64,000 bases of DNA from the NCBI RefSeq assembly GCF_018127785.1, contig NZ_CP072389.1, positions 868,001-932,000 of the forward strand, in the 5' to 3' direction. The position numbers were made by a program, and so were the translations under genes. This document shows positions 2,187-50,758 of the stretch, piece after piece (position 1 is the first letter of the stretch; each line of letters begins with the position of its first letter). Source of the DNA: Prevotella scopos JCM 17725 (GTDB lineage: Bacteria; Bacteroidota; Bacteroidia; Bacteroidales; Bacteroidaceae). The notes beneath the pieces were generated by a model. The model was not told the DNA's origin and made no database searches. It saw only the letters and a list, made by a program, of their open reading frames with translations.

Positions 2187-4469
2187 TCACCTAACACCTA
2201 ACTTCATACTCAACGCAATCCTCTTACGACGGATATCAACCTCAACGACACGAACACGAACGTGTTGATGTAGGCGGACAATCTGCGTTGGATCAGTGAC
2301 AAAGCGGTCGGAGAGCTGAGAGATGTGTACAAGTCCGTCTTGATGAACACCAATATCGACAAAGGCACCAAAGTTGGTAATATTCGTCACAATACCAGGA
2401 AGTTCCATCCCAACGATGAGGTCGTCTAGCTTGTGGACATTCTTATCGAACTCAAAGACTTCAACCGCCCCACGTGGGTCACGACCAGGCTTCTCAAGTT
2501 CAGAGAGGATGTCACGAAGTGAAACCTCGCCCAAGGCTTCTGAAGGGCGGGATGAGTGGGAAGTGAGATAGCGTTGAATATCAATCTTCGACAAGAGACC
2601 CTTATTGCCAATCAAATCCTTTATCGTACAACCTTGGTCTTTTGCCATTTGCTCAACGATGTGATAGCTTTCAGGATGAACAGCAGAGTTGTCGAGCGGG
2701 TTCTTGGCATTAGGAATACGTAAGAAACCAGCACATTGCTGGAAGGCTGTATCACCCAGACGCTTCACCTTTTTAAGTTGGGTACGTGAGGTAAAGGCAC
2801 CATGTTCACGACGATAATCAATGATGTTTTGAGCAAGTGCAGGACCGAGTCCGCTAACGTAAGTGAGCAGATGTCGAGAAGCTGTATTGAGGTTGACACC
2901 AACCTGATTGACACAACTCATGACTGTTTGGTCGAGTGAGTGTCTTAATTTTATTTGGTCAACATCATGCTGATATTGTCCGACTCCGATACTCTTCGGG
3001 TCAATCTTTACAAGCTCAGCGAGTGGGTCCATCAGTCGCCGACCAATAGAGATGGCTCCACGTGTCGTCACATCCTCATCAGGAAACTCCTCACGTGCCA
3101 CAGGTGACGCAGAATAGATAGAAGCTCCGTCCTCGCTGACCACATATTTTAAGATGTCGCCAAAGTTCTGATTAGGTTCATGAAGAACCTTATTAACGAA
3201 GGCTTCTGACTCACGACTCGCCGTACCATTGCCGATGGCTATTGCCTCAACCTCATAAGTGGAAATCATCCTTTTCAAGGCTTGTGCCGCTTGTGCCTGT
3301 TGATTACGAGGTGGATGTGGATAGATAATCTCATGATGCAGGAGATTACCTTGTTCGTCAAGACAAGCAATTTTACATCCATTGGCAAAGCCTGGGTCGA
3401 GTGCTAAGATACGTTTCTGTCCAAGTGGTGGAGAGAGAAGCAACTGACGAAGATTATCTGTAAAAACCTTAATAGCCTCATCGTCAGCATGCTCCTTACT
3501 CAAAGCGGCGAATTCGTTTTCAATACTCAGATTGATTAGTCGTTTAAAGGAGTCGTCAATGGCCTTGCAGACAAGAGTCTGACATGTTCCGTTCCCTCGC
3601 ACAAACTGACGAGTGATGCGTGAGATGCACTCCTCGCCATCAATCATGATACTCACACGCAGGATGCCCTGCGCCTCACCCCGACGCATAGCAAGCAAAC
3701 GATGACTATTACAACGACGGAGCGGTTCAGAGAAGTCGAAGTAATCAGCAAACTTTTGTGCCTCATCCGTATCCTGCATCTTCTTAATAACTTTCGAAGA
3801 TATGATGGCCTCACGCTTATAAGCAGTGCGAACAGTATTGCGTGCCTGCTGGTTCTCAGAAACAATCTCGGCGATGATGTCTAAAGCCCCCTCCGACTCC
3901 CCCGAAAGGGGGAGAGACAAGCTTGCAAGTTCTTTGCTGAGATGTGGGGGGATAGGCACTCCCCTCCTTTCGGAGGGGTTGGGGGAGGCTTCTCTCATTA
4001 TCGCCAATGCCAATGGCTCCAATCCCTTTTCACGAGCTATCTGCGCACGTGTGCGCCGTTTGAGTTTATAAGGTAGATAGATGTCTTCCAATTCTGTGGA
4101 ATCCATACAAGCAAGAATTTTCCTTTCCAGTTCAGACGTTAGTTTCTCTTGCTCACGGATTGTCTTAAGGATGGTTTCCTTACGTTTGCTAAGTTCTTTT
4201 AAGCGCTCGTTTAGTTCACTAATATTGGTTATCTGTACCTCATCAAGGTTCCCTGTCCGCTCCTTACGATAGCGTGCTATAAAAGGAATCGTGCAGCCTT
4301 CATCGAGTAAGGTGAGAACTGCCGAAACGCTTTGGAGAGGAAGGGAAAGAGAGTGAGAGATAAAGGAAGCCCCCTCTGCCTCCCCCGCAAGAGGGAGAGC
4401 CTGATTTGCGGAGTGTTTGCTATTATTCTTGTGTTCGTTTTCCTTGCTGTATGGTGTTTGTCTAATCAT
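2187..4469 (-). CDS. tex: Tex-like RNA-binding transcription accessory protein with in-frame repeat insertions
   Basis: Cytoplasmic nucleic-acid-binding protein of the Tex/YhgF family. Order seen: N-terminal helical domain (LLDEGCTIPFIARYRKERTG), YqgF/RNase H-like domain starting RILALDPGF (about 355), helix-hairpin-helix region (NTASRHLLTYVSGLGPALA, about 523), and C-terminal S1 domain (about 683-755, ITNFGAFVDIGVHQDGLVHIS). At 760 residues it is longer than usual. The excess lies in repeat-derived segments: about residues 13-36 (ALPLAGEAEGA), about 159-194 (SPNPSERRG...SLPLSGESEGA) and possibly about 633-645 (SSRPSEALGE). All keep the frame. The start is ATG at 4469, 68 bp after the preceding gene, so it may share that transcript. 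Confidence 0.93.
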   Translation of the reverse strand: MIRQTPYSKENEHKNNSKHSANQALPLAGEAEGASFISHSLSLPLQSVSAVLTLLDEGCTIPFIARYRKERTGNLDEVQITNISELNERLKELSKRKETILKTIREQEKLTSELERKILACMDSTELEDIYLPYKLKRRTRAQIAREKGLEPLALAIMREASPNPSERRGVPIPPHLSKELASLSLPLSGESEGALDIIAEIVSENQQARNTVRTAYKREAIISSKVIKKMQDTDEAQKFADYFDFSEPLRRCNSHRLLAMRRGEAQGILRVSIMIDGEECISRITRQFVRGNGTCQTLVCKAIDDSFKRLINLSIENEFAALSKEHADDEAIKVFTDNLRQLLLSPPLGQKRILALDPGFANGCKIACLDEQGNLLHHEIIYPHPPRNQQAQAAQALKRMISTYEVEAIAIGNGTASRESEAFVNKVLHEPNQNFGDILKYVVSEDGASIYSASPVAREEFPDEDVTTRGAISIGRRLMDPLAELVKIDPKSIGVGQYQHDVDQIKLRHSLDQTVMSCVNQVGVNLNTASRHLLTYVSGLGPALAQNIIDYRREHGAFTSRTQLKKVKRLGDTAFQQCAGFLRIPNAKNPLDNSAVHPESYHIVEQMAKDQGCTIKDLIGNKGLLSKIDIQRYLTSHSSRPSEALGEVSLRDILSELEKPGRDPRGAVEVFEFDKNVHKLDDLIVGMELPGIVTNITNFGAFVDIGVHQDGLVHISQLSDRFVTDPTQIVRLHQHVRVRVVEVDIRRKRIALSMKLGVR
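3886..3993. repeat. GC-rich double-hairpin repeat inside tex (in frame)
   Basis: The left arm starts GCCCCCTCCGACTCCCCCGA and continues AAGGGGGAG, a hairpin. The right arm, CTCCCCTCC TTTC GGAGGGG followed by TTGGGGGAGGCTTC, is an inverted counterpart. About 108 bp, equal to 36 codons, is read as protein in Tex. The same arms occur in the ABC-F gene and the U32 gene and between genes. Confidence 0.8.
4369..4430. repeat. GC-rich repeat arm at the 5' end of tex
   Basis: GCCCCCTCTGCCTCCCCCGC followed by AAGAGGGAG is a diverged arm of the same element. On the minus strand it is preceded by AATAATAGCAAA, which also precedes the right arm in the ABC-F gene. Much of the first 35 residues of Tex therefore derives from the element. 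Confidence 0.65.
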
Positions 4470-4537
4470 TTTCAGATACTGGTTTATTTCTTATCTTTTG
4501 TGGAATATAACGACTTCCCTTCCATTGTTCTCTTCGG

Positions 4538-5101
4538 TCAGTGCCCTTTGTTTTTGGAAGAATCAGTAGGTTTTGTCTTAATCACGATGGTTGGATGTTT
4601 TTCTTGTCGTGGATCGTTTATATAAGTAATGATGTCGGCAGAGAGGATGTCCGTGGGCTTAATACGCCTTGGCAAAGCCTCCGTTATACGTTGGGGTGAA
4701 AGTTTGTAATCAATGATGGTCAGTCTTTTTCGTGGGTTTATCATCTTGCCGTTCAGAATCCATTGGAGTTCTGCAAGGGAGTTGGTTCGTATGAGGATGA
4801 TATCTGCGGGTAATTTACAGAATGTGATGTTCTTCCCTTGTTTTATCTGTTCTTCTGCCGAGAAAATTTGTATGGATTCGATGGCATAAGGCGGAATAAG
4901 TCCCAGCCTATGTGATACAATCTGTTTAGCCGAATCCGACCGCATCTCGTCAATGGTAACGTGCAGGAGGGAGTCGGGTAGAGGAATGCCATCAATGACG
5001 CATAAGGTCTGGGCACGTGTGGTGAGACTGGCGAGTACAGTCAGGATTATACAGGTCAGGACTCTTTTCAAGCTCAGTTTCATAAGAATCTTTTTGTTCA
5101 T
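4538..5101 (-). CDS. Exported protein of unknown function
   Basis: Not recognised. 187 residues from ATG at 5101; a TTG one codon upstream is possible. A signal peptide of about 30 residues ends near TTRAQ. The mature part starts TLCVIDGIPLPDSL and later has ESIQIFSAEEQ, loosely recalling the 'VVDG..-IESI-VLK' pattern of TonB-receptor plug domains; there is no barrel and the similarity is weak. It lies 5 bp after the L,D-transpeptidase-like gene and 68 bp before tex, so it is probably the second gene of that transcript and acts in the periplasm or envelope. Confidence 0.7.
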   Translation of the reverse strand: MNKKILMKLSLKRVLTCIILTVLASLTTRAQTLCVIDGIPLPDSLLHVTIDEMRSDSAKQIVSHRLGLIPPYAIESIQIFSAEEQIKQGKNITFCKLPADIILIRTNSLAELQWILNGKMINPRKRLTIIDYKLSPQRITEALPRRIKPTDILSADIITYINDPRQEKHPTIVIKTKPTDSSKNKGH

Positions 5102-5106
5102 CAAGA

Positions 5107-5763
5107 TTATTTATATGCATAAAGCAGGATGGGTTTTCTGCTCTTGTCACAAAGGGCTTCGATTTTCCTTAGCATAGCGGGGCTTGTCGTGAAGCACCCC
5201 CACGAAGCATCGGTGAGTGGGAGATAGGAGGTGAGATGGTGCATAATGCCTACGTATCGAGAACTATGGATGAGGATGTTTCTTCGGCGTGCATTGCAGT
5301 TCGAAGCATCAAGACCATCAAGTGCAAAACGCAGTCCGACAGTAGTGGAATAGCCTTTCTCTGCAATCTTGAAGGCTCCGAGACTTGAACATCTGCTTCC
5401 CTCCCTATTTGAGAAAATAGGTTTCCACGCACTATTACCCTCTCCTTTGCCGTGTGCGCAGGGACCAGTGTCGAGCACGGTCAATGTATTCAGGTCGATG
5501 ATAGCCATTCGGTCCTCACCCGATGGGCGTGAGAAGTCTACGAGGATGCAATAGTCTTCATTATATCCCCTTTCGTGACAGATTTCCCATACATCTTTGA
5601 AATGGCTTTGGAATGAATAGGATTTTATTTTCCAATAGCCCTTTATGCTAAAGTTGAGGATTAGAAGAGAGAGAAGAAAGAAAAAGAATAACCGACCTCT
5701 CCCCCTTATCCCTCCCCCGTAGAGGGGAGTGATATGTCTTTTTGATTGTGTTTTACTTTTCAT
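5107..5763 (-). CDS. L,D-transpeptidase-like (YkuD_2-type) envelope protein
   Basis: About 218 residues from ATG at 5763; a TTG at 5787 would add eight. One N-terminal membrane segment or uncleaved signal (LFFFFLLSLLILNF) is followed by a catalytic domain with the YkuD_2 pattern: HGKGEGN, SSLGAFKI, LDGLDASN, ARRRNILIHSSRYVG and SWGCFTTSP. The Cys of SWGC is the expected nucleophile and the His of LIHSS its partner. The family is thought to act on peptidoglycan cross-links; substrate is inferred. Residues just before the membrane segment (ITPLYGGGIRGRGR) are encoded by a GC-rich repeat arm, so the native N-terminus has been altered. Probably operonic with the 187-residue gene. Confidence 0.78.
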   Translation of the reverse strand: MKSKTQSKRHITPLYGGGIRGRGRLFFFFLLSLLILNFSIKGYWKIKSYSFQSHFKDVWEICHERGYNEDYCILVDFSRPSGEDRMAIIDLNTLTVLDTGPCAHGKGEGNSAWKPIFSNREGSRCSSLGAFKIAEKGYSTTVGLRFALDGLDASNCNARRRNILIHSSRYVGIMHHLTSYLPLTDASWGCFTTSPAMLRKIEALCDKSRKPILLYAYK

Positions 5764-5837
5764 TGCTGTATTTTTAATTTTTGGCAAATGACGGTAATCA
5801 CTCCCCTCCCTATGGGGGAGGGGTAAGGGGGAGGGGC
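5696..5837. repeat. Pair of inverted GC-rich repeat arms around the 5' end of the transpeptidase-like gene
   Basis: Arm 1 (5696-5733) reads CCTCTCCCCCTTATCCCTCC then CCCGTAGAGGGGAGTGAT. Arm 2 (5797-5837) reads ATCACTCCCCTCCCTATGGG then GGAGGGGTAAGGGGGAGGGG. They are near-perfect inverted copies about 60 bp apart. Arm 1 is translated in the transpeptidase-like gene. A lone arm of this subtype recurs at 39841-39879. Confidence 0.8.
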
Positions 5838-5869
5838 CAGTTGGTTGGTTCAGTTGGAGAGGGCTTTTT

Positions 5870-8011
5870 TTACATTCCCCTTGCCTTCAGCAACGCCTTG
5901 GTATCAGGAGCCTTAAGACCTGTGAAATCAGAGAAGATGGTCATGAGATCACGTGTGTTACCACGAGAAAGAACCTTCTGGCGGAAGTCATCACCTACCT
6001 TACGTGTCAAGGCACCATGCGTTGCAAAATAGTCGGCAATGTTCACTGCCAACACCTCACTCCACAGATAGCTGTAATAACCAGCTGCATATCCACCACC
6101 CCAGATGTGGTTGAAGTAAGATGTAGAGTAACGAGGAGGTATCTGATTATTCAACAAGCTCATATCCGCCAGCACTTTCTTCTCGAAAGCTGGAGCCGCT
6201 TCAGCTGTTGGAATCTCTGAAGGAGAAAGGCAATGCCATGCCATATCAACACTTGTTGCCGCAAGATTCTCACCCAATGAATAAGCTGAAAGGTAGTTCA
6301 GCGAACCCAGCATCTTCTCACGAAGTGCATCTGGCATTGGTTCGTTAGTCTTGTAATGACGTGCATAGTGGTTGAACACCTCAGGGATACTTGCAAACGA
6401 CTCATTAAACTGTGATGGCATCTCCACGAAGTCACGTGATACGGCTGTACCACTCAATGTGTTATACTTACAGTTTGAGAGCATACCATGCAGGGCGTGT
6501 CCAAACTCATGGAACATTGTCTCGGTCTCATCCCATGTGAGCAGTGTTGGTTGGCCTTCAGGTGCTTTCGCATAGTTACAAACATTGTAAATCAATGGTT
6601 TCTGATTGCGGTCACTACTCTGCTTAAGGAAGGCACTCATCCATGCTCCACCACGCTTTGTTGGACGACGGAAGTAATCACAATAGAAGAGAGCCAACTG
6701 CTTACCATCGCCATCAAGTACGTCAAACACTTTCATATCCTTATGATAGGTTGGGATATCCTTACGCTCACGGAAGTTAAGTCCATAGACACGATGAGCA
6801 GCATAGAAGATACCATTCACAAGTACTGAATCGAGGTTGAAATAAGGCTTCACATCATCGTCTGAAAAGTTAAACTGCGCCTTCTTCATCTTTGCTGAGT
6901 AATAGAAGCGATCGTAAGGTTGGAGACGGAAGTCAGCACCCTCAGTCTTCTGCGCATACTCCTCAATAGCCTTTGTCTGCGCCTCAGACTTTGGTTTGTA
7001 AGCCTCAACCATCTGGTGTAGGAAGGCATAGACATTGTCTGTGTTCTTAGCCATTGTCTGTGAAAGTGAGTAAGAAGCATAGTTCTTATATCCCATGAGC
7101 TGTGCCTTCTCTGCACGCAGACGTGCAATCTTCACGATGATTGGGAAGGTGTTGTAAGCACCTGTACCATCCGTACGATGAATTGAAGCATTGTAAACCT
7201 TCTCACGTAGGGCACGATTGTCAAGACTTGCGAGGATTGGTTGCTGTGTAGTGTTCGTAATCACGATACAATAAGGTGCCTTACCGCCACGGCTTTCAGC
7301 ATCCTTCTTGCACTGTGCAATATCTCCCTCACTGAGGCCTGCCAATTCCTTAACGTCACTGACCCATACCGTAGCTTCGTTGCCTGCTTTAGGAAGCATA
7401 TCTCCAAACTCCTGCTGGAGCTTAGCCAGTTCCTTGTTGATTTCCTGCATCCGAGCCATCTTATCTTTTGCGAGGAGGGCACCAGCATGAGTGAAATCCT
7501 TATAGATAACTTCTAAGAGTTTCTTATCTTCACCCTTGAGTGTCTTGTATTCGTGATCGTAAACATACTTGATACGCTGGAAGAATTTCTGATTGAATTT
7601 AATTTCATTCTCAAATTCTGTCAGTAAAGGAACGATACTTGTTTGTGCCTTCTCAATCTCTGGTGTCTTATCAGCTGACACCAAGGCGTAGAAGATGTTT
7701 GACACACGCTCAAGCATCTTTCCGCTTCGCTCGTAAGCCAAAACAGTGTTAGCAAAAGTAGGCTTCTGCTTATTGTCAGTAATCTTCTTAATCTCCGCTC
7801 TCTGCTGAGCGATACCCGCTTTGATGGCAGGGAGGTAGTCGTCCCCCTTGATACGACTAAAATCAGGGGCATTGAAAGGTAATGTACTTGGTTTCATAAG
7901 TGCGTTACTTACCATTTGTGTAGTCTTTGGTCTTGCGTTTTGAGCCTGACCCGTGAGTGCTGTACAGACAAGTCCTGCAGCAAGCACAACATGTTTAAGA
8001 TTCTGTTTCAT
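5870..8011 (-). CDS. dcp: Exported M3-family peptidyl-dipeptidase (Dcp-like)
   Basis: Zinc peptidase removing dipeptides from peptide C-termini, here exported. 713 residues, family-typical. The N-terminal signal peptide is MKQNLKHVVLAAGLVCTALT followed by GQAQ. The active site is FHEFGHALHG near residue 500 (zinc-binding HExxH), with the downstream VEMPSQFNE supplying the third ligand region. The C-terminus has the M3-typical YSYLWSEVLAVNIADYF. It stands alone on its transcript, with a promoter candidate about 130 bp upstream. Together with the M13 peptidase and the metalloproteases nearby it points to periplasmic peptide catabolism. Confidence 0.93.
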   Translation of the reverse strand: MKQNLKHVVLAAGLVCTALTGQAQNARPKTTQMVSNALMKPSTLPFNAPDFSRIKGDDYLPAIKAGIAQQRAEIKKITDNKQKPTFANTVLAYERSGKMLERVSNIFYALVSADKTPEIEKAQTSIVPLLTEFENEIKFNQKFFQRIKYVYDHEYKTLKGEDKKLLEVIYKDFTHAGALLAKDKMARMQEINKELAKLQQEFGDMLPKAGNEATVWVSDVKELAGLSEGDIAQCKKDAESRGGKAPYCIVITNTTQQPILASLDNRALREKVYNASIHRTDGTGAYNTFPIIVKIARLRAEKAQLMGYKNYASYSLSQTMAKNTDNVYAFLHQMVEAYKPKSEAQTKAIEEYAQKTEGADFRLQPYDRFYYSAKMKKAQFNFSDDDVKPYFNLDSVLVNGIFYAAHRVYGLNFRERKDIPTYHKDMKVFDVLDGDGKQLALFYCDYFRRPTKRGGAWMSAFLKQSSDRNQKPLIYNVCNYAKAPEGQPTLLTWDETETMFHEFGHALHGMLSNCKYNTLSGTAVSRDFVEMPSQFNESFASIPEVFNHYARHYKTNEPMPDALREKMLGSLNYLSAYSLGENLAATSVDMAWHCLSPSEIPTAEAAPAFEKKVLADMSLLNNQIPPRYSTSYFNHIWGGGYAAGYYSYLWSEVLAVNIADYFATHGALTRKVGDDFRQKVLSRGNTRDLMTIFSDFTGLKAPDTKALLKARGM

Positions 8012-8138
8012 ATTCTTTTATTTATTTCTTATGTTGAAAAATGTGTATTAATAGGTTAGGTTTAAAGATTTCCAAATAAGTATTTATTGCTGGTAAATAT
8101 TCAGAATGTGAATAATCACCCTTTTCTCCTTTATTCCG

Positions 8139-8146
8139 CAAACTTA
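8139..8146 (-). promoter_or_regulatory. -7 box candidate for the M3 peptidase gene
   Basis: TAAGTTTG on the minus strand, about 130 bp upstream of the ATG. No convincing TTG at 19-21 nt upstream, so support is partial. Confidence 0.3.
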
Positions 8147-8279
8147 CAAAAAAAAATCGAGATGAGAAAATTATGAACGACGAATGTTTATTATCAGCTG
8201 TTTAGAAAAAGTTACATTAGTTGATTATTTCTACACATTATTTATCCGTCACACTTTGCATTCATCATCAAACCACGTG

Positions 8280-8575
8280 GCGTAATAACGAATCGTATGA
8301 CTAAATAATTTCAATTGACCGAGAGAAAATATCATGGTCGAAAGTCATTGTCCCTTACTCATTTAACGGTGAAACACCCCATAGTCAACCATCGCTTTGC
8401 AACGCTTTACGTACATCACATCCTTATTCAATCCTGTTTCATTGTGCAATTATCGCTCCGCACATGTGGTGCTAGCCATCCGCACCATCCGTGCTAAGCC
8501 TCCGCACCATCCGTGCTAGGCACCCGCACCAAACATACTAAGTATCAATAAAACAACCGATGTTGGTAAACGTGG
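8280..8575 (+). repeat. Degenerate MITE-like element, copy A, with three 22-bp units
   Basis: It fills much of the 1 kb gap between the M3 peptidase and the ABC-F gene. The left end has ATAACGAATCGTATGA, like the terminal repeat of copy C. Near the right end, three 22-bp units (8460-8525) each start CACA or CACC, have GTGCTA in the middle and end CCG. They are followed by CACCAAAC and ATCAATAAAACAACCGATG, parallel to copy B. Its inner part is much diverged, so the ends are approximate. No open reading frame in it looks real. Confidence 0.6.
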
Positions 8576-8806
8576 GTAGATATTGTATAAGTTAAGATTA
8601 TAATCCATGCTAACTCATTGACAGATCTCAACTTACGCCATCCTAATTAGCTGCGACTAGGAATAGATAACTTGGTTCTTATCCTATCTGTTAATTCCAT
8701 CGACTAAACATCTCAAAGGTTGAAAATTAAACTTCCAAGGTTAATGTTCAAAGTCCCCATCAAACGCTCACAGATTTATGTGAGAAAACGAATAGAACTC
8801 AATGCT

Positions 8807-8844
8807 CCAAGTTCAAAATTCAAAGTCCAAAACTCAAAGTTCAT
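8807..8844. repeat. Short tandem tract of AAGTTCAAA-like units
   Basis: Degenerate direct repeats of AAGTTCAAA / AAAGTCCAAA / AAAGTTCA, the complement of the TTTGAACTT tracts at 11040 and 37548. The rest of 8576-9010 is AT-rich with no gene. Confidence 0.55.
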
Positions 8845-9012
8845 AAAATCATTGCTTCTTTTCGTTATTTTTACTAACTTTGCCCATTACATATAATGTA
8901 GAGACAGATTAGGTAAAAATCCTATGATTAGTTTTACCTAAAGGGTTCCCAATAGTTCTTGATTCAACGAAGTTAGACTATACGAGGACTTTACAATTCG
9001 AAAAGAAAATAT

Positions 9013-9020
9013 TATCTTTG
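9013..9020 (+). promoter_or_regulatory. -7 box candidate for the ABC-F gene
   Basis: TATCTTTG matches TAnnTTTG and lies 28 bp before the ATG. The expected upstream TTG is at best TTTAC near 8990. A purine-rich stretch (AGGAAAGAGAAAAG) precedes the ATG. Confidence 0.5.
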
Positions 9021-9048
9021 CAAAGAATATTTAGGAAAGAGAAAAGAA

Positions 9049-11058
9049 ATGATATCAATAGACGGACTGACGGTGGAATTTGGCGTAAAGCCATTGTTTA
9101 AGGATGTTTCATTCGTCATCAACGAACGAGATAGGATAGCCTTAGTGGGCAAGAACGGAGCAGGAAAGTCAACGATGCTGAAGATTCTCTGTGGGATGCA
9201 GAAGCCAACGAGCGGTTCAGTGTCTGTACCAAATGACACAACGATAGGCTATCTTCCACAGGTAATGAAGCTATCTGACGATACTACCGTGAAGGAAGAG
9301 ACGCGCAAGGCTTTCGCTGACAAAACGAAGATGGAAGAGAAGCTCAAGAAGATGGAGCAAGAGATGGCTGAGCGTACCGATTATGAGAGTGATGGATATG
9401 CTGAGTTAGTAGAACGCTTCACAACGGAACACGAGCGTTATATGATGATGGGAGGTGAAAACTATGAGGCTGAGATAGAACGAACGTTGACTGGTCTTGG
9501 TTTTACTAGAGAAGACTTTGAACGTCCTACACGTGAGTTCTCCGGTGGATGGCGTATGCGTATTGAGTTAGCAAAGATTCTCCTTCGTCGTCCTGATGTG
9601 CTCCTCCTTGATGAGCCGACGAACCACCTTGATATCGAGTCTATACAATGGTTGGAGCAGTTTCTCGCTCAGAGTGCTAAGGCTGTTGTGCTCGTAAGTC
9701 ACGACCGTGCTTTTGTCAATAACGTGACGAATCGTACGTTAGAGATTACTTGCGGACACGTGGAAGATTATCGTGTGAAGTATGATGAGTATCTTGTTCT
9801 TCGGAAAGAACGTCGTGAGCAACAACTTCGTGCCTATGAGAATCAACAGAAAGAGATTGCGGATACTAAGGCTTTCATTGAGCGTTTCCGTTATCAGGCT
9901 ACTAAAGCCGTACAGGTACAGCAGCGCATCCGCCAATTGGAGAAGATTGTGCCTATAGAAGTTGACGAGGTGGATAATTCTGCTATGCGCCTAAAGTTCC
10001 CTCCCTGCTTACGAAGTGGCGATTACCCGATTATTGCAGAGGATTTGGGCAAAACTTATCCAAGTCGCTTGCATAGCGATGGACCTGGTCAGACGGTATT
10101 TGAGGCTGTCAATCTAATCATCAAACGAGGTGAAAAGGTAGCCTTTGTTGGTAAGAATGGTGAGGGAAAATCTACTTTTGTGAAGTGTATCATGGGTGAG
10201 ATACCATTTGATGGTACGCTGAAGATAGGGCATAATGTGCAGATAGGTTATTTTGCACAGAACCAAGCACAACTGTTGGATGAGAATCTGACGATTTATG
10301 ATACCATCGACAGAGTGGCTACAGGCGATATGCGTTTGAGAATCAACGATCTGCTTGGTGCCTTTATGTTTGGCGGAGAGACTTCTGAGAAGTATGTAAA
10401 GGTACTATCTGGTGGTGAGCGTTCACGCCTGGCTATGATTAAACTCTTGCTTGAGCCTGTCAACCTCCTCATCCTCGACGAGCCAACGAACCATCTTGAC
10501 ATCGCTTCAAAAGAAGTGTTGAAAGAAGCAATTAAAGCCTTTGATGGGACGGCTATCATCGTGAGCCACGACCGTGAGTTCTTAGATGGATTGGTCAGCA
10601 AGGTGTATGAGTTCGGAGGCGGTAAGGTGAGAGAGCATCTGGGCGGTATCTACGACTGGCTCAAAAGCCCCCTCCAGCTCCCCCGAAAGGGGGAGAGTGC
10701 AGAGAATCTCTCGCTGAGTGGTGGGGATAATGGTAAGTTTTCATCAAATAATAGCAAAGATGCAACTCTCCCCCTTTCGGGGGAGTCGGAGGGGGCTTCT
10801 TCTTTATCTTACGCTGAACGCAAAGAACAACAGAAGAAAATTCGTAAGGCACAACGTGCTGTTGATGAGTCTGAAGCAAAAATAGCGAAGTTGGAAGCAC
10901 GTAAGAGTGAACTCGATGAACTCCTCATGGCTCCTGAGAATGCCTCGAATATGGAACTCGTAACAGAATATACCAACCTACAACGTGAACTTGATGAGGA
11001 GAACGATAGATGGATGGTACTATCGGAAGAGCTGGAGACTTTGAACTTGGAACTTTGA
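9049..11058 (+). CDS. ABC-F family ATPase with in-frame repeat insertion
   Basis: Soluble duplicated ABC protein of the ABC-F group (ribosome-associated translation factors; Uup/YdiF/EttA relatives), with no membrane segment. Domain 1: GKNGAGKST (34-42), signature FSGGWRMR (about 164), Walker B LLLDEPTNHLD. Domain 2: GKNGEGKST (about 368), LSGGERSR (about 453), LLILDEPTNHLD. A charged interdomain linker lies at about 240-300. Residues about 540-584 are encoded by a GC-rich repeat element inserted between domain 2 and the C-terminal coiled coil (AERKEQQKKIRKAQRAVDES), so the Uup-like tail is displaced but still in frame. The last codons and the TGA fall in a TTTGAAC repeat tract. A resistance role is not indicated by sequence alone. 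Confidence 0.93.
   Translation: MISIDGLTVEFGVKPLFKDVSFVINERDRIALVGKNGAGKSTMLKILCGMQKPTSGSVSVPNDTTIGYLPQVMKLSDDTTVKEETRKAFADKTKMEEKLKKMEQEMAERTDYESDGYAELVERFTTEHERYMMMGGENYEAEIERTLTGLGFTREDFERPTREFSGGWRMRIELAKILLRRPDVLLLDEPTNHLDIESIQWLEQFLAQSAKAVVLVSHDRAFVNNVTNRTLEITCGHVEDYRVKYDEYLVLRKERREQQLRAYENQQKEIADTKAFIERFRYQATKAVQVQQRIRQLEKIVPIEVDEVDNSAMRLKFPPCLRSGDYPIIAEDLGKTYPSRLHSDGPGQTVFEAVNLIIKRGEKVAFVGKNGEGKSTFVKCIMGEIPFDGTLKIGHNVQIGYFAQNQAQLLDENLTIYDTIDRVATGDMRLRINDLLGAFMFGGETSEKYVKVLSGGERSRLAMIKLLLEPVNLLILDEPTNHLDIASKEVLKEAIKAFDGTAIIVSHDREFLDGLVSKVYEFGGGKVREHLGGIYDWLKSPLQLPRKGESAENLSLSGGDNGKFSSNNSKDATLPLSGESEGASSLSYAERKEQQKKIRKAQRAVDESEAKIAKLEARKSELDELLMAPENASNMELVTEYTNLQRELDEENDRWMVLSEELETLNLEL
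10667..10800. repeat. Complete GC-rich double-hairpin element inside the ABC-F gene
   Basis: Left arm: GCCCCCTCCAGCTCCCCCGA then AAGGGGGAGAG. Right arm: CTCTCCCCCTTTCGGGGGAG then TCGGAGGGGGC. The arms are inverted copies separated by about 75 bp that contain CTGAGTGGTGGGGATA (similar to the tex copy) and AATAATAGCAAA (shared with the 5' end of tex). Best-preserved full-length copy in the window. Confidence 0.85.
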
Positions 11059-11130
11059 TTTTTGGAAGTTTGAACTTTGAAGTTTGAAGTTTGACTTTTG
11101 AAGTTTGACTTTTGAAGTCTAGACTTTGAG
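11040..11130. repeat. TTTGAAC/TTTGAAG tandem tract overlapping the ABC-F stop codon
   Basis: Irregular direct repeats of ACTTTGAA and AGTTTGAA units beginning in the last codons of the ABC-F gene and running about 70 bp beyond its TGA. The unit alternates with its own complement, so the tract can pair with itself. Similar tracts lie at 37548-37620 and 8807-8844. Confidence 0.7.
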
Positions 11131-11224
11131 CGCTAACGTTTTTACTGTCTTACTCTTTTACTTTTTTATCGCAGTTCTCATAATTATTAATTTTGGATTT
11201 TGAATTATCTAAAACATATTTACT

Positions 11225-13258
11225 ATGCGTATCAAAACACTTTTACCAATGATGCTCTTAGCATCTGCCCCGATTACTGGCATGGCGCAAGGCCAAGCAG
11301 GTATCAAGGCTGAAAACCTAGACAAGTCGGTACGTCCGGCTGACGACTTCTTTACATTTGCTACTGGTGGATGGCAGAAACTAAATCCGCTACCAGGTGC
11401 TTTCTCGCGTTTTGGTTCTTTCGACCAACTACAGGAGAACAATAACAAACGTATCAACACCATCCTTACTGATTTGCTTAAGAAGCCTGGTAAAGAAGGG
11501 TCAGTTGAGAGAAAGCTGAGCGACTTCTATAAGCTCGCCATGGACTCTGTGCGTCGTAACAAAGAGGGAATTAGTCCGGTTAAACCTTTACTCAGCGAGA
11601 TGGAAGACGCAAAGACACTCTCAGACCTTCGTGCACTTCAGCTAAAGTATGCTAGCTTTGGTTATGGCGTGCCAATGGAATACAGCTTCGAGGCTGACGA
11701 GAAGAATGCCAAGATGAATATCCTCCTTATCTATCAGGGTGGGTTGAGTCTTGGACAGAAGGAATACTATCTGGACAATGATAAGGCAACGACTGACATT
11801 CGTAATGCTTATCGCCAGTTTATTGCAAACATGTTCCGTCTCTATGGCTTCTCTGATACACAAGCCAAGGCTAAGAGTGATGCCATTATGCGTTACGAAA
11901 CAATGTTAGCCTTGATATCTAAAAGTCGTACCGAGATGCGCGATGTAGAGGCTAACTACAACAAGATGACACTCAATGAGTTTAAGGAGAAGTATCCAAA
12001 CATTCCTCTTGAACAATTGATGAATGCTGAAGGTGTTAATAGCAAGGATATTCAGACGATGGTAGTAGGTCAACCATCTTTCCTTGCTGGTGTTGACAAG
12101 TTGGCTTCAACAGAGAGTGCTGACGAACTTCGTGCTCGTATGGAGTGGAGTGCTATCTTGGCTTCAGCTAATTATCTGAGCGATGATGTTCGTGCAGAAT
12201 ACTTCAACTTCTTCAGTAAGACGATGCGTGGTACCAAGGAGGATTACCCTCGTTGGAAGCGTGCCACACAACAGGTAGAGAAGCAGATGGGTGAGGCTTT
12301 GGGTCGTATCTATTGTGAGCGTTACTTCCCTGCGTCAAGTAAGAAGCGTATGGAAGAACTGATAAAGAACCTCGAAGTGAGTCTTGCTGAACGTATCAAA
12401 GCACAGGACTGGATGAGCGAGGCTACAAAGAAGGCAGCACTTGAGAAGCTCTCAACCTTCTATGTTAAGGTGGGCTATCCTAATAAGTGGAAGGACTTAG
12501 GTGAACTTAAGATTGATCCATCAAAGTCATATTATGAGAATGTGCAGAACTGCCATAAGTTCTGGGCAAAGGATGCTATTGAGGAGAAGGCTGGTAAGCC
12601 TGTCGATAAGGACAAGTGGCTGATGACACCACAGACGGTAAATGCTTATTATAACCCTACGACAAACGAAATCTGCTTCCCAGCAGGTATCCTGCAGTAT
12701 CCTTTCTTTGACCCTAAGGCTGATGACGCTTTTAACTATGGTGCTATTGGTGTGGTTATCGGTCATGAGATGACACACGGATTTGATGACCAAGGTCGTC
12801 ACTATGACAAGGATGGTAATATGACAGACTGGTGGACAGAAGAAGATGGTAAGAACTTTGAGGCACGTACGGGTAAGTATGCCGACTTCTTCAGTGCTAT
12901 TAAGGTGTTACCTGACCTCAATGCAAATGGTAAGCTCACCTTGGGTGAGAACCTCGCTGACCATGGTGGTCTTGAGGTTGCCTTCAATGCTTTCATGAAG
13001 ACACCAGAGGCTAAGAAGGGTAAGACAATCATGGGCTTCACACCTGAACAGCGTTTCTTCATCGCTTATGCTGGTGTATGGGCAAACAACATCACTGAAG
13101 CTGAGATTCGCAGTCGTGTAAAGAGTGACCCTCACTCTCTTGGCGAATGGCGCGTGAATGGTGCTTTACCACATATCAACGCATGGTATAAAGCGTTTGG
13201 TGTGAAGGAAGGTGATAAGCTGTTCATCCCAGAAGCTCAGCGGTTGAAGCTTTGGTAG
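11225..13258 (+). CDS. pepO: Exported M13-family zinc endopeptidase (PepO/neprilysin-like)
   Basis: Zinc endopeptidase acting on oligopeptides, exported by a signal peptide (MRIKTLLPMMLLASAPITGM, then AQ). 677 residues, typical. The N-terminal cap domain starts VRPADDFFTFATGGWQ. Catalytic motifs are VIGHEMTHGFDDQG (HExxH near 514) and GENLADHGGL (third zinc ligand Glu near 574); NAYYNP and CFPAGILQYPFF are also typical. The C-terminus ends in a short variant of the family's CxxW motif (AQRLKLW, without the Cys). Monocistronic, followed by a strong terminator at 13378. Same likely pathway as the M3 peptidase. Confidence 0.94.
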   Translation: MRIKTLLPMMLLASAPITGMAQGQAGIKAENLDKSVRPADDFFTFATGGWQKLNPLPGAFSRFGSFDQLQENNNKRINTILTDLLKKPGKEGSVERKLSDFYKLAMDSVRRNKEGISPVKPLLSEMEDAKTLSDLRALQLKYASFGYGVPMEYSFEADEKNAKMNILLIYQGGLSLGQKEYYLDNDKATTDIRNAYRQFIANMFRLYGFSDTQAKAKSDAIMRYETMLALISKSRTEMRDVEANYNKMTLNEFKEKYPNIPLEQLMNAEGVNSKDIQTMVVGQPSFLAGVDKLASTESADELRARMEWSAILASANYLSDDVRAEYFNFFSKTMRGTKEDYPRWKRATQQVEKQMGEALGRIYCERYFPASSKKRMEELIKNLEVSLAERIKAQDWMSEATKKAALEKLSTFYVKVGYPNKWKDLGELKIDPSKSYYENVQNCHKFWAKDAIEEKAGKPVDKDKWLMTPQTVNAYYNPTTNEICFPAGILQYPFFDPKADDAFNYGAIGVVIGHEMTHGFDDQGRHYDKDGNMTDWWTEEDGKNFEARTGKYADFFSAIKVLPDLNANGKLTLGENLADHGGLEVAFNAFMKTPEAKKGKTIMGFTPEQRFFIAYAGVWANNITEAEIRSRVKSDPHSLGEWRVNGALPHINAWYKAFGVKEGDKLFIPEAQRLKLW

Positions 13259-13377
13259 GTGATGGATGTTGGGTATTGATGGCTTGATGGTTAATTTACT
13301 TTCAGCCTTTTATACCTATCATTCCTATTACTCCTATCATTTGGTATTAGCCACACCGATAAATCTATAAAATAAAG

Positions 13378-13440
13378 GACTCACTCTAGGCAATCTATCA
13401 GATATTTTTCTGATAACAAAGCCTAGGGTGAGTCTTTTTT
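13378..13440 (+). terminator. Strong rho-independent terminator after the M13 peptidase gene
   Basis: GACTCACTCTAGGC (13378-13391) pairs with GCCTAGGGTGAGTC (13421-13434), followed by TTTTTTGTTGTTT. The loop holds a second small hairpin (ATCAGATA/TTTCTGAT). The remaining bases of 13259-13597 carry the metA promoter and no other gene. Confidence 0.9.
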
Positions 13441-13494
13441 GTTGTTTCACTGAGTAGTATATTATTCTTAGCAATACTTTTGTGCAAGTAAGAC

Positions 13495-13525
13495 TTGTAA
13501 AATCTGTGATTAATTACTATCTTTG
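13495..13525 (+). promoter_or_regulatory. Promoter for metA
   Basis: TTG (13495-13497), 20-nt spacer, TATCTTTG (13518-13525): a full match to the Bacteroidota consensus. It lies about 70 bp before the metA ATG. I saw no SAM riboswitch in the leader. Confidence 0.7.
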
Positions 13526-13597
13526 TAGCTTATTTAAATTAGAGAAAATAGAGGGACTGTATGCTTATGCTCCCACAAAAGATAAAGGAAACAGGAT

Positions 13598-14482
13598 ATG
13601 CCATTAAGATTACCTGACGGACTTCCCGCAATTGATATATTGAAGCGTGAGAATATCGACATCGAAGAAATGCTTGTAAAGAAAGATGACAAGCGACCCA
13701 TTCGTATTGTCATTCTCAATCTTATGCCGTTCAAGGCAACGACTGAGACGGATTTCATACGCCTTCTGTCTCATAGTCCACTTCCCATGGACATTAGCTT
13801 TCTGAAATTGAAAAGTCATACATCAAAGCATACACCACAGGAGCACATGGACCGTTTCTATCATACACTTGAGGAAGTAAACAAGGAGCAAGTTGATGGA
13901 CTTATCGTCACTGGTGCACCCGTTGAAGATATCCCTTTCGAAGAGGTGGACTATTGGCGAGAACTACAAGAGATATTCAATTGGGCGCATGAGAATGTGC
14001 GTTCAACGCTCTACATCTGTTGGGCGGCACAGGCTGGACTCTATCATTTCTATGGCATCCCGAAATATCCATTACCAAAGAAGATGTTTGGTATCTTCCC
14101 AACAACCCCACTAAAGCTAAATCTACCTCTCTTCCGTGGTTTTGATGATGTCTTCCGTATGCCACAGAGTTGTCATACGGAGGTAAGACGCGAGGATATC
14201 GACCGCATTGACGACCTCGAGGTCATTGCTGAGTCTGCAGAGAGTGGCGTGTCAATCATCAGATCACGAAGTAGGCAAGACTTCTTTATCACGGGCCACA
14301 TGGAGTATGCTCCCAACACCCTTGACACAGAGTATCGTCGTGACCTTGGCAAGCGTGATGACGTTGAACTCCCAAAGTATTATTATCGTGAAGACAATCC
14401 TGAGAATGGCCCGCTAGTCACCTGGCGTGCCCATGCCAACCTGCTATTCACGAATTGGGTGATGGGTATTAATGAAATGTAA
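13598..14482 (+). CDS. metA: Homoserine O-acyltransferase (MetA family, probably acetyl-CoA-using)
   Basis: First committed step of methionine synthesis: acylation of homoserine. 294 residues, cytoplasmic. Visible motifs: NLMPFKATTETDFIRLL, IVTGAPVEDIPFEEVDYW, catalytic Cys141 in YICWAAQAGLYHFYG, RGFDD, and the His/Glu pair in ITGHMEY. Position 110 (GAPVED) is Glu; in the published MetA comparison the equivalent residue 111 is Glu in acetyl-CoA-dependent enzymes and Gly in the E. coli succinyltransferase, so acetylation is predicted. It has its own promoter and lies about 80 bp before the U32 gene, with a 7-bp repeat tract between. Confidence 0.94.
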   Translation: MPLRLPDGLPAIDILKRENIDIEEMLVKKDDKRPIRIVILNLMPFKATTETDFIRLLSHSPLPMDISFLKLKSHTSKHTPQEHMDRFYHTLEEVNKEQVDGLIVTGAPVEDIPFEEVDYWRELQEIFNWAHENVRSTLYICWAAQAGLYHFYGIPKYPLPKKMFGIFPTTPLKLNLPLFRGFDDVFRMPQSCHTEVRREDIDRIDDLEVIAESAESGVSIIRSRSRQDFFITGHMEYAPNTLDTEYRRDLGKRDDVELPKYYYREDNPENGPLVTWRAHANLLFTNWVMGINEM

Positions 14483-14499
14483 GTCGTACTTAATACTAT

Positions 14500-14606
14500 T
14501 TCCCAACAACCAACAATAGTAACCATCAACAACCAACACCCAACAACCAACACCCAACAATATGTATTCATCAACACCCAACACCCAACACCCAACACCC
14601 AACAAT
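14500..14606. repeat. 7-bp tandem repeat (CAACACC) spanning the start of the U32 gene
   Basis: Four perfect CAACACC units (14572-14599) plus a partial fifth lie immediately after the ATG at 14562. Before the ATG, CAACAAC and CAACACC units alternate with the same 7-bp period. The unit length is not a multiple of three, so gain or loss of one unit after the ATG shifts the frame. Confidence 0.85.
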
Positions 14607-16694
14607 ATCGAGCTTCTCGCCCCAGCCAAGAACCTAGAGTGTGGCATAGCTGCAATTGACCATGGTGCTGACGCTGTTTACATCGGTGCTTCACGCTTTG
14701 GCGCTCGTCAGTCAGCAAGCAATAGTATGGAGGATATTGGTAAGTTGTGCGAATATGCTCATCGCTATGGTGCAACGGTCCACGTGACAATCAATACGAT
14801 TATCTATAACGACGAGTTTGAGGAAACACTTGCTTTGGTACGCAAACTGGTGAAGGTGGGTGTAGATGCTTTCCTCCTGCAAGACATGGGATTGATGAGT
14901 AAGGTGAGGGAGATGGTCCCCGACACGGTAGCCCTCCACGCCAGCACGCAGTGTGACACACGTACGTGGGAGAAAGCACAGTGGCTGAGCCTGCAGGGTT
15001 TTGACCGCGTTGTACTGGCTCGCGAACTATCTGCTGAAGAGATTAAGGATATTCACAGGAAGTTACCTGACCTTGAGTTAGAGGCTTTCGTGCATGGAGC
15101 GTTATGTGTGAGTTATAGCGGTGTCTGCTATGTCTCACAATATAGTTTCGGTCGTTCTGCCAATCGTGGAGCCTGTGCACAGTTTTGTCGATTAGCATTC
15201 GACTTAAAAGACGCAGATGGGAAAACTATCGAACATCAGCGTCATCTTCTCTCATTGAAGGATATGAGTCAAATAGATAATCTTGAGACGCTGATGCGTT
15301 CTGGCGCTTGTGCCTTTAAGATTGAAGGACGACTGAAAGACATCAACTATGTGAAGAATGTTGTTTCAGCATATAGTAAGCGTATTGATGAGATTATCCG
15401 CAAGAACCCTGGCGAGTTCCGTCGTACCTCATTAGGACGTGTCCGCTATTCGTTTACACCTGATTTGAAGAAGACTTTCAATCGTGGATATACTAATTAT
15501 TTTCTCAAAGGAAGACAAGCCGACATCTTCTCACCCGATACGCCAAAGGCTCTCGGTGAGTTTGTGGGTCGCATAAAGGAGATCAGACGTGATAGTTTTA
15601 ACGTGTCCAGCACAGCAAACTTTGCCAATGGTGACGGACTATGTTTCCTTTCACGTGATCCAGAAAGTCAGTCTGCACGCTTGGAGGGTTTCCGTGTGAA
15701 TCGTGCTGTTGGTAATCGTCTATACCCTTTCAAGATGCCTCGAGGCTTAAAGGCTGGTATGAGCCTATACCGCAACCAGGATCAAGCATTCGACAAGGAG
15801 TTGAGTGGAAAGACCGCTGAACGTAAGATTCAGATAAAGATGTGGTTTGGAGCTAACCCTGAGACCTCCCCCACCCTCTCCGAAGGAGGGGAAGATCATG
15901 GGCTGATATGGGCAAGAGCTGAGGTGATTGGGGCTAAACTTATATCATACGAACAAACATCTGACCAGCATCCTGTTTCAAATTCAACTTCTCACGAAAC
16001 GACCTCCAACGAGCATCCCGTTAGATGCTCCTCTTCTTTGGAGGGACTGGGGGAGATAGCCCTTACCCTCCAACTTGCACAGAAACCACAACATGATAAT
16101 ATCATTCGTCAGCTGACAAAACTGGGTAATACCGTTTATGAGTGTGCAGATGTTGAGATTGTTGATGGGGCGGATAAATACTTCATTCCAAGTAGCATTT
16201 TGGCAGAACTTCGTCGTTTGGTGATAGAAAATCTTGACAAAGAAGTAATGAGTATGCAGCGTATGACCATTCATAGAAAGTCGAAAAAGAATTCCTCAGA
16301 ACCTAAGCTGCAATTCTCCATGGTAAATCCATCTCAGTACCAGCAATTACCTTATCTTTATAATATCTCTAATGATGCAGCCCGCAAGTTCTATGAACAG
16401 CAAGGACTAACCAAGGCCGCCCCCGCCTTTGAGATTCAATATCCTAATGGTGTTGCCAATGGTGCGGATGCAACATCTAAGTCATTCTCAATTAAGGGGG
16501 ACAAAGAAGCTGTTTCTCACCTATTGATGCAGTGCCGTCATTGCATTCGTTATTCACTCGGATACTGTGTCAAGCGTGGTGGGAAAAAGCCTACTTGGCG
16601 TGAACCTCTCTTCCTCGAGCTACCTGACAAACGTCGTTTTCGTTTAGAATTCGATTGTAAGAATTGTCAGATGAACGTGTGTAATGTTACTTAA
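14562..16694 (+). CDS. U32 family protein (RlhA/YdcP-like) with repeat-encoded N-terminus and insertion
   Basis: U32 proteins of the YdcP/RlhA branch hydroxylate RNA (RlhA: 23S rRNA C2501); older annotations call them collagenase-like peptidases. 710 residues, longer than usual. The conserved core starts IELLAPAKNLECGIAAIDHG. The U32 signature is EAFVHGALCVSYSGVCYVSQ (about 173), then SANRGACAQFCR. C-terminal cysteines CRHCIRYSLGYC and CKNCQMNVC may bind a cluster or zinc. Residues 4-14 come from the 7-bp tract, and about 435-500 from a degenerate GC-rich repeat. No alternative start exists between the tract and the core, so the ATG at 14562 is the only sensible one. Confidence 0.9.
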   Translation: MYSSTPNTQHPTPNNIELLAPAKNLECGIAAIDHGADAVYIGASRFGARQSASNSMEDIGKLCEYAHRYGATVHVTINTIIYNDEFEETLALVRKLVKVGVDAFLLQDMGLMSKVREMVPDTVALHASTQCDTRTWEKAQWLSLQGFDRVVLARELSAEEIKDIHRKLPDLELEAFVHGALCVSYSGVCYVSQYSFGRSANRGACAQFCRLAFDLKDADGKTIEHQRHLLSLKDMSQIDNLETLMRSGACAFKIEGRLKDINYVKNVVSAYSKRIDEIIRKNPGEFRRTSLGRVRYSFTPDLKKTFNRGYTNYFLKGRQADIFSPDTPKALGEFVGRIKEIRRDSFNVSSTANFANGDGLCFLSRDPESQSARLEGFRVNRAVGNRLYPFKMPRGLKAGMSLYRNQDQAFDKELSGKTAERKIQIKMWFGANPETSPTLSEGGEDHGLIWARAEVIGAKLISYEQTSDQHPVSNSTSHETTSNEHPVRCSSSLEGLGEIALTLQLAQKPQHDNIIRQLTKLGNTVYECADVEIVDGADKYFIPSSILAELRRLVIENLDKEVMSMQRMTIHRKSKKNSSEPKLQFSMVNPSQYQQLPYLYNISNDAARKFYEQQGLTKAAPAFEIQYPNGVANGADATSKSFSIKGDKEAVSHLLMQCRHCIRYSLGYCVKRGGKKPTWREPLFLELPDKRRFRLEFDCKNCQMNVCNVT
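15864..16062. repeat. Diverged GC-rich double-arm element inside the U32 gene
   Basis: Left arm: ACCTCCCCCACCCTCTCCGA then AGGAGGGG. Right arm: GCTCCTCTTCTTTGGAGGGA then CTGGGGGAG. They are inverted and about 130 bp apart. The sequence between is low in conserved residues and includes an approximate duplication (ACCAGCATCCTGTT / AACGAGCATCCCGTT). Confidence 0.65.
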
Positions 16695-16720
16695 ATGAAT
16701 ACATAATCTATAGCTTTATC

Positions 16721-39808: not shown

Positions 39809-39840
39809 GAAAGGAGAAGAACAACAACGACAACGGACTG

Positions 39841-39879
39841 GCCCCTCCCCTTTGCCCCTCCCCCGTAGGGAGGGGAGTG
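39841..39879. repeat. Single GC-rich repeat arm downstream of thrS
   Basis: GCCCCTCCCCTTTGCCCCTC then CCCCGTAGGGAGGGGAGTG; same subtype as the pair at 5696-5837. The rest of 39880-40036 shows no gene. Confidence 0.75.
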
Positions 39880-40036
39880 AATACTGCGATATCCCTATTA
39901 TGTAGGGTATGTAGTGATATGATAATAACTTATTTGCAGGGGGAGAACAGAAGTTGGAAATCCTTCGCCTTTAGAGGCTAACATATTATGACCTTCGTGG
40001 TCTTCCCCTCTCACTACGAGAGAAGAAAAACATTAT

Positions 40037-40065: not shown

Positions 40066-40077
40066 ATTTATAAGTTT

Positions 40078-50022: not shown

Positions 50023-50033
50023 AATACTAATCC

Positions 50034-50747: not shown

Positions 50748-50758
50748 AATACTAATCT

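What the first reader, a model, noticed from the sequence alone, without database searches (positions are those of the whole stretch)
3886..16062. GC-rich double-hairpin repeat inserted in frame in several housekeeping proteins
The same inverted arms (CTCCCCCGAAAGGGGGAG cores) lie inside tex (3886-3993; 4369-4430), the ABC-F gene (10667-10800), the U32 gene (15864-16062) and probably ispH (42470-42610). They are translated without breaking the frame, giving peptides such as SLPLSGESEGA. All sites are at domain borders or termini. The same arms also occur between genes (5696-5837, 39841-39879). This parallels the Rickettsia palindromic elements that insert into coding genes. In this group it may be undescribed, and it could be a REP/RAYT-type or other non-autonomous element.
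Basis: partly seen in the sequence, partly recalled or inferred. Interest (0 to 1): 0.78.

Follow-up and report, generated by a model that had tools for sequence, protein, structure and literature searches.

The report
Hairpin repeat inside Prevotella proteins
A short, GC-rich DNA repeat that folds into one or two hairpins has spread through Prevotella genomes and sits, without breaking the reading frame, inside several working proteins, giving unrelated proteins the same extra floppy peptide; similar cases are known in other bacteria, but this family, and its lack of the usual copying enzyme, look new.

Summary
The GC-rich arms form a genome-wide family: about 60 candidate hairpin sites in this 3.3-Mb Prevotella genome and 0 to 179 pattern hits per genome in 60 genomes of the genus. 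An arm is about 35 nt: purines, a C-rich tail, then a hairpin. Arms occur alone or as tail-out pairs. Some pairs are whole elements of about 100-170 bp: in P. vespertina one element occurs at least four times, twice in frame, in ABC-F and in an unrelated 806-aa protein, with the same peptide (APSSSPERGRAPIR..EDKQG). The P. veroralis ABC-F element likewise matches the tex element of this genome, in the same frame. In-frame arms also lie in U32, RibD, an oxidoreductase fusion, a DUF559-RNase H fusion, and at several termini. Most relatives measured lack the segment in RibD, U32 and tex; at tex and ABC-F the native linker seems replaced rather than interrupted. Outside genes, arms here lie just after stop codons in a fixed orientation (27 of 34, 8 expected); this is weak in other species. 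The genome has no Y1 (RAYT) transposase hit, and copy number does not follow Y1 across 60 genomes. Best reading: a new REP/RPE-like non-autonomous element tolerated in disordered linkers; mobiliser unknown.

The parts
2187..4469 (-). tex gene (760 aa) carrying two arm sites
   Evidence: Pfam Tex_N, Tex_YqgF, HHH, S1; 2oce/3bzc match
3884..3991 (.). two-arm element (arms 3884-3916 and 3959-3991) in frame in tex; peptide ASPNPSERRGVPIPPHLSKELASLSLPLSGESEGA
   Evidence: same whole element as in P. veroralis ABC-F (73% over query positions 3-144)
4367..4399 (+). single arm near the tex N-terminus (ALPLAGEAEGA)
5698..5729 (+). arm inside the N-terminal part of an L,D-transpeptidase-like ORF (TPLYGGGIRGRG; start codon uncertain)
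5804..5834 (-). second arm of that pair, between genes
9049..11058 (+). ABC-F gene (669 aa)
   Evidence: Pfam ABC_tran, ABC_tran_CTD
10665..10798 (.). two-arm element (134 bp) in the linker between second ATPase domain and C-terminal domain; SPLQLPRKGESAENLS...LPLSGESEGA
   Evidence: best PDB match stops at residue 540, CTD match starts at 599
14562..16694 (+). U32 peptidase-family gene (710 aa)
   Evidence: PF01136, PF12392
15863..15892 (+). first, diverged arm in U32 (TSPTLSEGGE)
15955..16028 (+). interior with SDQHPVSN/SNEHPVR segments, a 10-aa variable-number repeat in relatives
16029..16057 (-). second, decayed arm in U32 (SSSLEGLGE)
39838..39880 (+). single arm between genes, hairpin 46 nt after a stop codon
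42466..42645 (-). extra segment of about 50 aa in ispH with decayed arm-like remnant at 42484-42516 (weak)

Best explanation
A family of short, non-autonomous, REP-like interspersed elements of Prevotella. The unit is an arm of about 35 nt: purine-rich edge, C-rich tail (CCTCCCCCNN), GC hairpin (CCCCTCC-GAAA-GGAGGGG and variants), then a short subtype-specific inner sequence. Units occur singly, in tandem (another species) or as tail-out pairs. At least some pairs have been copied as whole elements with their interior to unlinked places, including the inside of genes (shown). In this genome copies survive mainly just after stop codons and in linkers, loops and termini of proteins, where the peptide (rich in S, P, G, E, N) is disordered and harmless (location shown; disorder and tolerance inferred). 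Because the arms hold almost no stop codons in any frame, a landing often fuses rather than truncates (composition shown; consequence inferred). Later the native linker may be lost and the insert drifts in length (shown by comparison). The enzyme that copied the element is not identified and is not a Y1 transposase now present in these genomes (absence by profile search shown; another enzyme inferred).
For: Genome-wide family; genus-wide: 49 of 60 genomes, own included. Whole-element copies: P. vespertina ABC-F element at C1:13253 (itself), 21223 (90%), 17288 (85%), C11:139196 (84%) plus a broken copy at C1:18117-18292; the 17288 copy is in frame in an 806-aa ORF, same frame and peptide as in ABC-F. 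P. veroralis ABC-F element versus own-genome tex element and two further P. vespertina copies, same frame in the two coding copies. Four coding copies are open in that frame; of five other copies two carry stops in it and three are open. Absence in relatives: RibD 66 aa here against 10-16 aa in 22 others measured; U32 25-31 aa in P. vespertina, veroralis and histicola against 56-175 in the window's close relatives; tex 28-52 aa without arms in 29 of 29 others. 35 of 50 arm records open in all six frames against 1.6% of control windows. Same linker hit in two species: DUF559-RNase H fusion here and in G016.
Against: No target-site duplication or clean single-step empty site was found; RibD carries about 39 nt and 80 nt of further unmatched sequence around its arm. 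In ABC-F and tex a native linker of similar length is missing, so replacement by recombination is possible; the 785-aa fusion shows no net gain (51 against 56 aa). Many pair interiors match no other copy in my set, so not every pair is a moved unit. The window's own ABC-F element is read in another frame than the P. vespertina one at the same place. In the own genome the only long shared interior was between two non-coding pairs 1.6 kb apart (80 nt, 95%), none between two genes. Start codons of the N-terminal fusions are uncertain (longest-ORF calls). No mobiliser is known. One strict arm pattern found nothing in viral contigs.
Confidence: 0.74

Rival explanations
1. Classical REP/REPIN: the arms are mobilised by a Y1 (RAYT/TnpA-REP) transposase, present in some Prevotella and lost in others.
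For: Architecture (short palindrome, inverted pairs, position near gene ends, intragenic copies) is that of REPs (PMC3733652, section 15 read). Y1_Tnp occurs in 34 of 60 genomes of the genus.
Against: No hit in the own genome nor in G003, G026, G019, G046, G047 (element-rich, at least 91% complete); Spearman 0.09, p 0.49. GTAG/CGTC tags rare or absent. The Y1 loci themselves were not inspected for flanking arms.
Confidence: 0.12
2. Functional RNA element: a 3'-end hairpin (terminator, processing or stability element) kept by selection after stop codons; the copies in genes are by-products of its spread by recombination.
For: 27 of 34 oriented non-coding arms have a stop codon of the same strand within 60 nt on the tail side, simulation 8.0 +- 2.3, maximum 16 in 2000 trials. 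Stable RNA hairpins, -15.4 to -20.5 kcal/mol for three arms and their complements. A terminator scan of 3500-17000 flagged the second ABC-F arm (10771-10795, then CTTCTTCTTT), inside the gene, among 15 sites (shuffles 8.9 +- 3.2).
Against: The arms listed are as a rule not followed by a T-run; no Rfam match in the window. Weak in other species: same-side stop within 60 nt for 2 of 11 oriented arms (G003), 2 of 5 (G026), 5 of 37 (G016), against 25 of 37 here, and 1 of 4 in the 80 named loci. Does not explain whole-element copies in two genes.
Confidence: 0.2
3. Not mobile: ancestral low-complexity linkers that became GC-rich and palindromic, spread locally by gene conversion or slippage.
For: The ABC-F linker varies in all 80 named relatives, 31-70 aa. 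The U32 insert grows in 10-aa steps. Several P. vespertina copies lie within 30 kb of each other.
Against: The same interior on different contigs and in unrelated proteins; up to 179 pattern hits in a genome with almost none for the control pattern.
Confidence: 0.05

Closest known systems
Rickettsia palindromic elements (RPE)
   Same: Palindromic elements that encode a conserved peptide and are often fused in frame to unrelated genes (as summarised in PMC10969869, passages read; the original Ogata papers seen only in its reference list).
   Different: Other phylum; arms with C-rich tails; in this genome also strongly placed after stop codons; single-arm, tandem and pair forms. Sequence kinship not tested.
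REP / REPIN / BIME (GTAG and CGTC superfamilies)
   Same: 20-40 nt hairpins, inverted dimers, close to 3' ends of genes, some intragenic copies encoding 20-30 aa (PMC3733652, section 15 read).
   Different: GTAG/CGTC tag rare or absent, no Y1 transposase hit in the host genome, copy number independent of Y1.
MITEs
   Same: Inverted arms at both ends of a short non-coding element.
   Different: No target duplication established and no parent transposon among the ORFs checked (genome not searched for transposases); arms also live alone.
PINSR of Prevotella intermedia/nigrescens (PMC4755523, section 14 read)
   Same: High-copy repeat of the same genus.
   Different: 188 bp, intergenic, no terminal inverted repeats, judged non-coding by its authors.

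Membership tests
REP/REPIN | Short (20-40 nt) high-copy palindrome | tested here: met
REP/REPIN | Inverted pairs forming larger units | tested here: met
   43 tail-out pairs in the window and 86 loci scanned; 39 after dropping pairs that share the second arm, three of them places seen twice
REP/REPIN | GTAG or CGTC tetranucleotide tag | tested here: not met
   6 of 50 and 0 of 50 arm records within 8 nt
REP/REPIN | Cognate Y1 transposase (RAYT) in the genome | tested here: not met
   0 hits in G000; no correlation in 60 genomes
REP/REPIN | Location at 3' ends of genes | tested here: met
   27 of 34 in the own genome; weak in three other species
RPE-like protein-coding palindrome | In-frame copies of one element in unrelated genes | tested here: met
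   ABC-F and 806-aa protein in P. vespertina; ABC-F (P. veroralis) and tex (own genome)
RPE-like protein-coding palindrome | Peptide kept in the mature protein | not testable with these tools
   needs proteomics
RPE (Rickettsia) | Sequence homology to RPE families | not tested
   no Rickettsia sequences fetched
MITE | Target-site duplication | tested here: inconclusive
   RibD, U32 and tex flanks too diverged
MITE | Parent transposon with the same ends | tested here: inconclusive
   15 ORFs holding or neighbouring arms: none matched a transposase family, one (L171:3898-4785) matched nothing; whole genome not searched for transposases

The most novel reading that the evidence does not exclude
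A protein-coding palindromic element family of a new phylum, copied by a hairpin-recognising enzyme other than a Y1 transposase, that lands next to stop codons and in linkers and repeatedly supplies the linkers, C-termini and N-termini of core proteins (it already forms the C-terminus of PnuC and probably the N-terminus of ThiN in two species), so that it acts as a maker of disordered protein parts.
Probability: 0.3. Interest if true: 0.75.

Novelty: new variant of a known kind. Interest (0 to 1): 0.58.

Why it matters
Mobile DNA that turns into protein sequence is known in bacteria mainly from Rickettsia and from intragenic REPs. Here whole copies, coding and non-coding, exist in one genus, with relatives lacking them, so gain, frame choice, drift and loss of native linker can be followed. 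It also poses an open question: what copies a REP-like element where no RAYT is found. And it warns annotators that shared peptides such as SPNPSERRG or LPLSGESEGA in unrelated Prevotella proteins are not homologous domains.

Tried and rejected
Rejected: chance GC runs (runs of 4+ are fewer than expected, 127 against 151; runs of 5+ 37 against 29, so it is the palindromic arrangement that is unusual). Not supported: invertible promoter; at the one locus compared (pnuC-thiN) the pair has the same orientation in G000 and P. vespertina. Rejected: known RNA family (no match in the window). Tried: arms in viral contigs, one strict pattern, 0 matches. Tried: oriented-arm scan of the 80 named loci with a strict hairpin finder: only 13 oriented arms (9 in genes, 4 outside, 1 of the 4 near a stop), 35 unoriented, too few to use. 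Tried: literature for a description in Prevotella or Bacteroidetes: the listings and the passages I opened show none; most subscription journals are not in the library.

Disorder of the inserts therefore rests on composition only: 8 of 10 inserts score above 0.22 on a recalled scale (TOP-IDP), whole proteins 0.09-0.11; the ABC-F insert (0.235) lies just under the 95th percentile of its own protein's 40-aa windows (0.24), tex N-terminus and RNase H linker score 0.19. An alignment of 29 arms mixed subtypes and was not used for a covariance model.

Full report
What was checked. The window is G000:C1:868001-932000 of a 3.30-Mb, 3-contig genome of the Prevotella melaninogenica group: the nearest named relatives returned are P. 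jejuni, P. vespertina, P. veroralis and P. histicola (records very near the own genome may be left out there). The arms exist as described. Pattern searches of the own genome gave 72 strand hits against 1 for the reversed control and 43 places against 6. In the window and 36 fetched loci, three regular expressions gave 64 hairpin sites in 49 clusters. Some are probably chance hairpins (the second control gives 6), and diverged arms such as those of U32 are missed, so the census is approximate.

Anatomy. Lining up arms from four genomes gives: purine edge (often AGAAG), C-rich tail CCTCCCCC or CCCCTCCCCC, usually two to three free bases, hairpin, then a short inner sequence that differs by subtype (AGTGCCTATGCGCACACGAG, AGTGCCTAACGG, AGTGATTACCGAGATACC, AGGCAAATAGGATAAG in this group; AGTGCTAACTTGCG in 44-nt tandem arrays of G016). 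Stems differ between subtypes and stay complementary, but my finder asked for a stem, so this is no test of covariation. I looked for tail-out pairs only: 43, or 39 after dropping those sharing the second arm, three of them places seen twice.

Movement. Interiors of pairs were compared with each other. Many show no or only short matches, so a pair is not always a moved unit. But several are whole copies. The P. vespertina ABC-F element has copies at C1:21223-21357 (90%), C1:17288-17422 (85%) and C11:139196-139322 (84%), a broken copy at C1:18117-18292, and some 45 arm-only matches, among 52 matches listed. The C1:17288 copy lies in frame in an 806-aa ORF with a sub-threshold DUF3987 match. The two proteins then share APSSSPERGRAPIRxxEDKQG...NRxPLxSEGxGEA. 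The P. veroralis ABC-F element aligns over its full length with the tex element of the window's genome (73%) and with two P. vespertina copies, C1:35157 and C1:40307 (72% each); the first is spanned by short ORFs of 101 and 170 aa that I did not test, the second by none over 100 aa. The four coding copies (three genes, three species) use the same frame; of five other copies, 3672 (C1:21223) and 6735 (the broken one) have stops in that frame, while C11, C1:35157 and C1:40307 are open in it. So the frame is partly open by nature, and the evidence for selection on it is modest. Against a fixed frame: the window's own ABC-F element is read one frame off the P. vespertina one (SPLQLPRKGES against APSSSPERGR).

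Coding copies in this genome (with Pfam). Internal, with conserved sequence on both sides: tex middle, ABC-F linker, U32, RibD, a Fer4_20/Pyr_redox_2 fusion of 785 aa (linker), a DUF559-RNase H fusion (linker). C-terminal: RarA/MgsA (APPQPSPKGEGDK*), PnuC (SLPQPLRKEGSA*, the stop codon lies in the element). N-terminal, start codon uncertain: tex, L,D-transpeptidase, ThiN, a metallo-beta-lactamase-fold protein, WbqC; next to a start codon: an ABC ATPase (MlaF-like, label recalled) and a Gly_transporter protein. The pnuC-thiN pair is shared with P. vespertina at the same place and orientation, so it is old; there PnuC ends SLPKPLLKE*, in a broken arm.

Filled and empty sites. ABC-F: all 120 listed orthologs carry SPLQLP-type inserts (the list is the best 120 of 7999 scored). 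In 80 named relatives the linker is 31-70 aa; outside the P. melaninogenica group many have RAHNAETI.. and no arms, while other lineages carry other repeats there (L120, L063, L067 similar GC arms; L086, L092, L101, L103, L105, L108 TTCCCANNNNGGGAA units; L123 GAGGAACGAGG units). So the linker is a recurrent landing place, and in the window's group the native linker was replaced. Tex: 29 of 29 others have a native-type segment (28-52 aa, mostly ..QREQNP..RFVKGDV..AL.GA) and 119 of 120 close orthologs with both anchors have 37-90 aa with arms instead; Pfam Tex_central_region is recognised only from model position 28. RibD: 66 aa against 10-16 in the 22 other genomes where both anchors were found (7 of 30 loci had no anchor). 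U32: 25-31 aa in three sister species, 61 in P. jejuni, 20-38 in the other 12 measured, 56-175 in the 120 close orthologs; 13 of 29 loci had no anchor. The 785-aa fusion: linker 51 aa here, 56 in P. vespertina and P. veroralis without arms, no net gain (8 of 30 loci with anchors). The DUF559-RNase H fusion of the distant G016 has an arm of another subtype in the same linker.

Location outside genes. Of 62 hairpins, 16 lay inside ORFs, 11 outside could not be oriented and 35 outside could. With longest-ORF gene calls, 27 of the 34 that have a gene on both sides have the stop codon of a same-strand gene within 60 nt on the tail side; placing them at random in their own intergenic spaces gives 8.0 +- 2.3, maximum 16 in 2000 trials. 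This is weaker in P. vespertina (2 of 11), P. veroralis (2 of 5) and G016 (5 of 37), where many arms could not be oriented by the same rule. Nearness to 3' ends is a known REP property.

Frame neutrality. 35 of 50 arm records have no stop in any of six frames (11 more are open in five); of same-length windows 1.6%. No whole pair examined is open in all six frames (0 to 5), so selection must still act on interiors.

Mobiliser. PF01797 has no hit in the own genome and hits in 34 of 60 genomes of the genus. Arm counts and Y1 counts do not correlate (rho 0.09, p 0.49; 33 better genomes: 0.11, p 0.56); 7 of 19 genomes with at least 40 strand hits have no Y1 hit, 6 of 11 with no arm hit do. ORFs holding or next to arms are ordinary genes. 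Beyond the genus, a draw of 198 Bacteroidales genomes gave at least one hit in 71 (own genome included), but more than ten per strand only in G061, G081, G206 and G238 besides the own; the two genomes of another genus of the family had none.

Reading. What it works like: a Rickettsia-type protein-coding palindrome with REP-like arms. Membership: not a GTAG/CGTC REP with RAYT by the tests made; kinship with RPEs was not tested. The steps shown are dispersal of whole elements, in-frame presence in several genes, absence in relatives, and lack of Y1. Inferred are the tolerance through disorder, and the existence of another copying enzyme.

Noticed in passing
window 8428-8550, 17956-18195, 40062-40333, 54166-54266: A second interspersed repeat: body of about 150 nt (88% between two copies) with GCACCATNNGTGC-like palindromes in 22-nt steps and edges like AACGAATCGTGTGGGT.
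   Followed up: no
window 49797-52993: Five tandem repeats of about 720 bp (paralogous genes), copies 69-84% like the first over 300 nt.
   Followed up: no
window 11040-11143 and 37527-37651: TTTGAA(C/G)TTTGAAGTTTGAA repeats beginning at the ABC-F stop codon and at a second place.
   Followed up: no
L086, L092, L101, L103, L105, L108 (ABC-F linker): TTCCCANNNNGGGAA palindromes, mostly in 22-nt tandem, found in these loci only in the ABC-F linker: an unrelated palindrome in the same linker.
   Followed up: partly
U32 orthologs P0241-P0360: A 10-aa repeat (QTSDQHPVLN) varies in number within the U32 insert among closely related sequences, insert 56-175 aa in all.
   Followed up: partly
tex and U32 orthologs: Some sequences have TSLRSVTVGS nested inside the arm-coded peptide (LPFTSLRSVTVGSGEPEG against LPLSGEPEG), perhaps another small hairpin in the loop.
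   Followed up: no
G003, G026, G008: No tex ortholog at E 1e-100 in three relatives that carry the element.
   Followed up: no
G016:C1:294761-295133 and 371652-371942: Tandem arrays of arms, mostly every 44 nt.
   Followed up: partly
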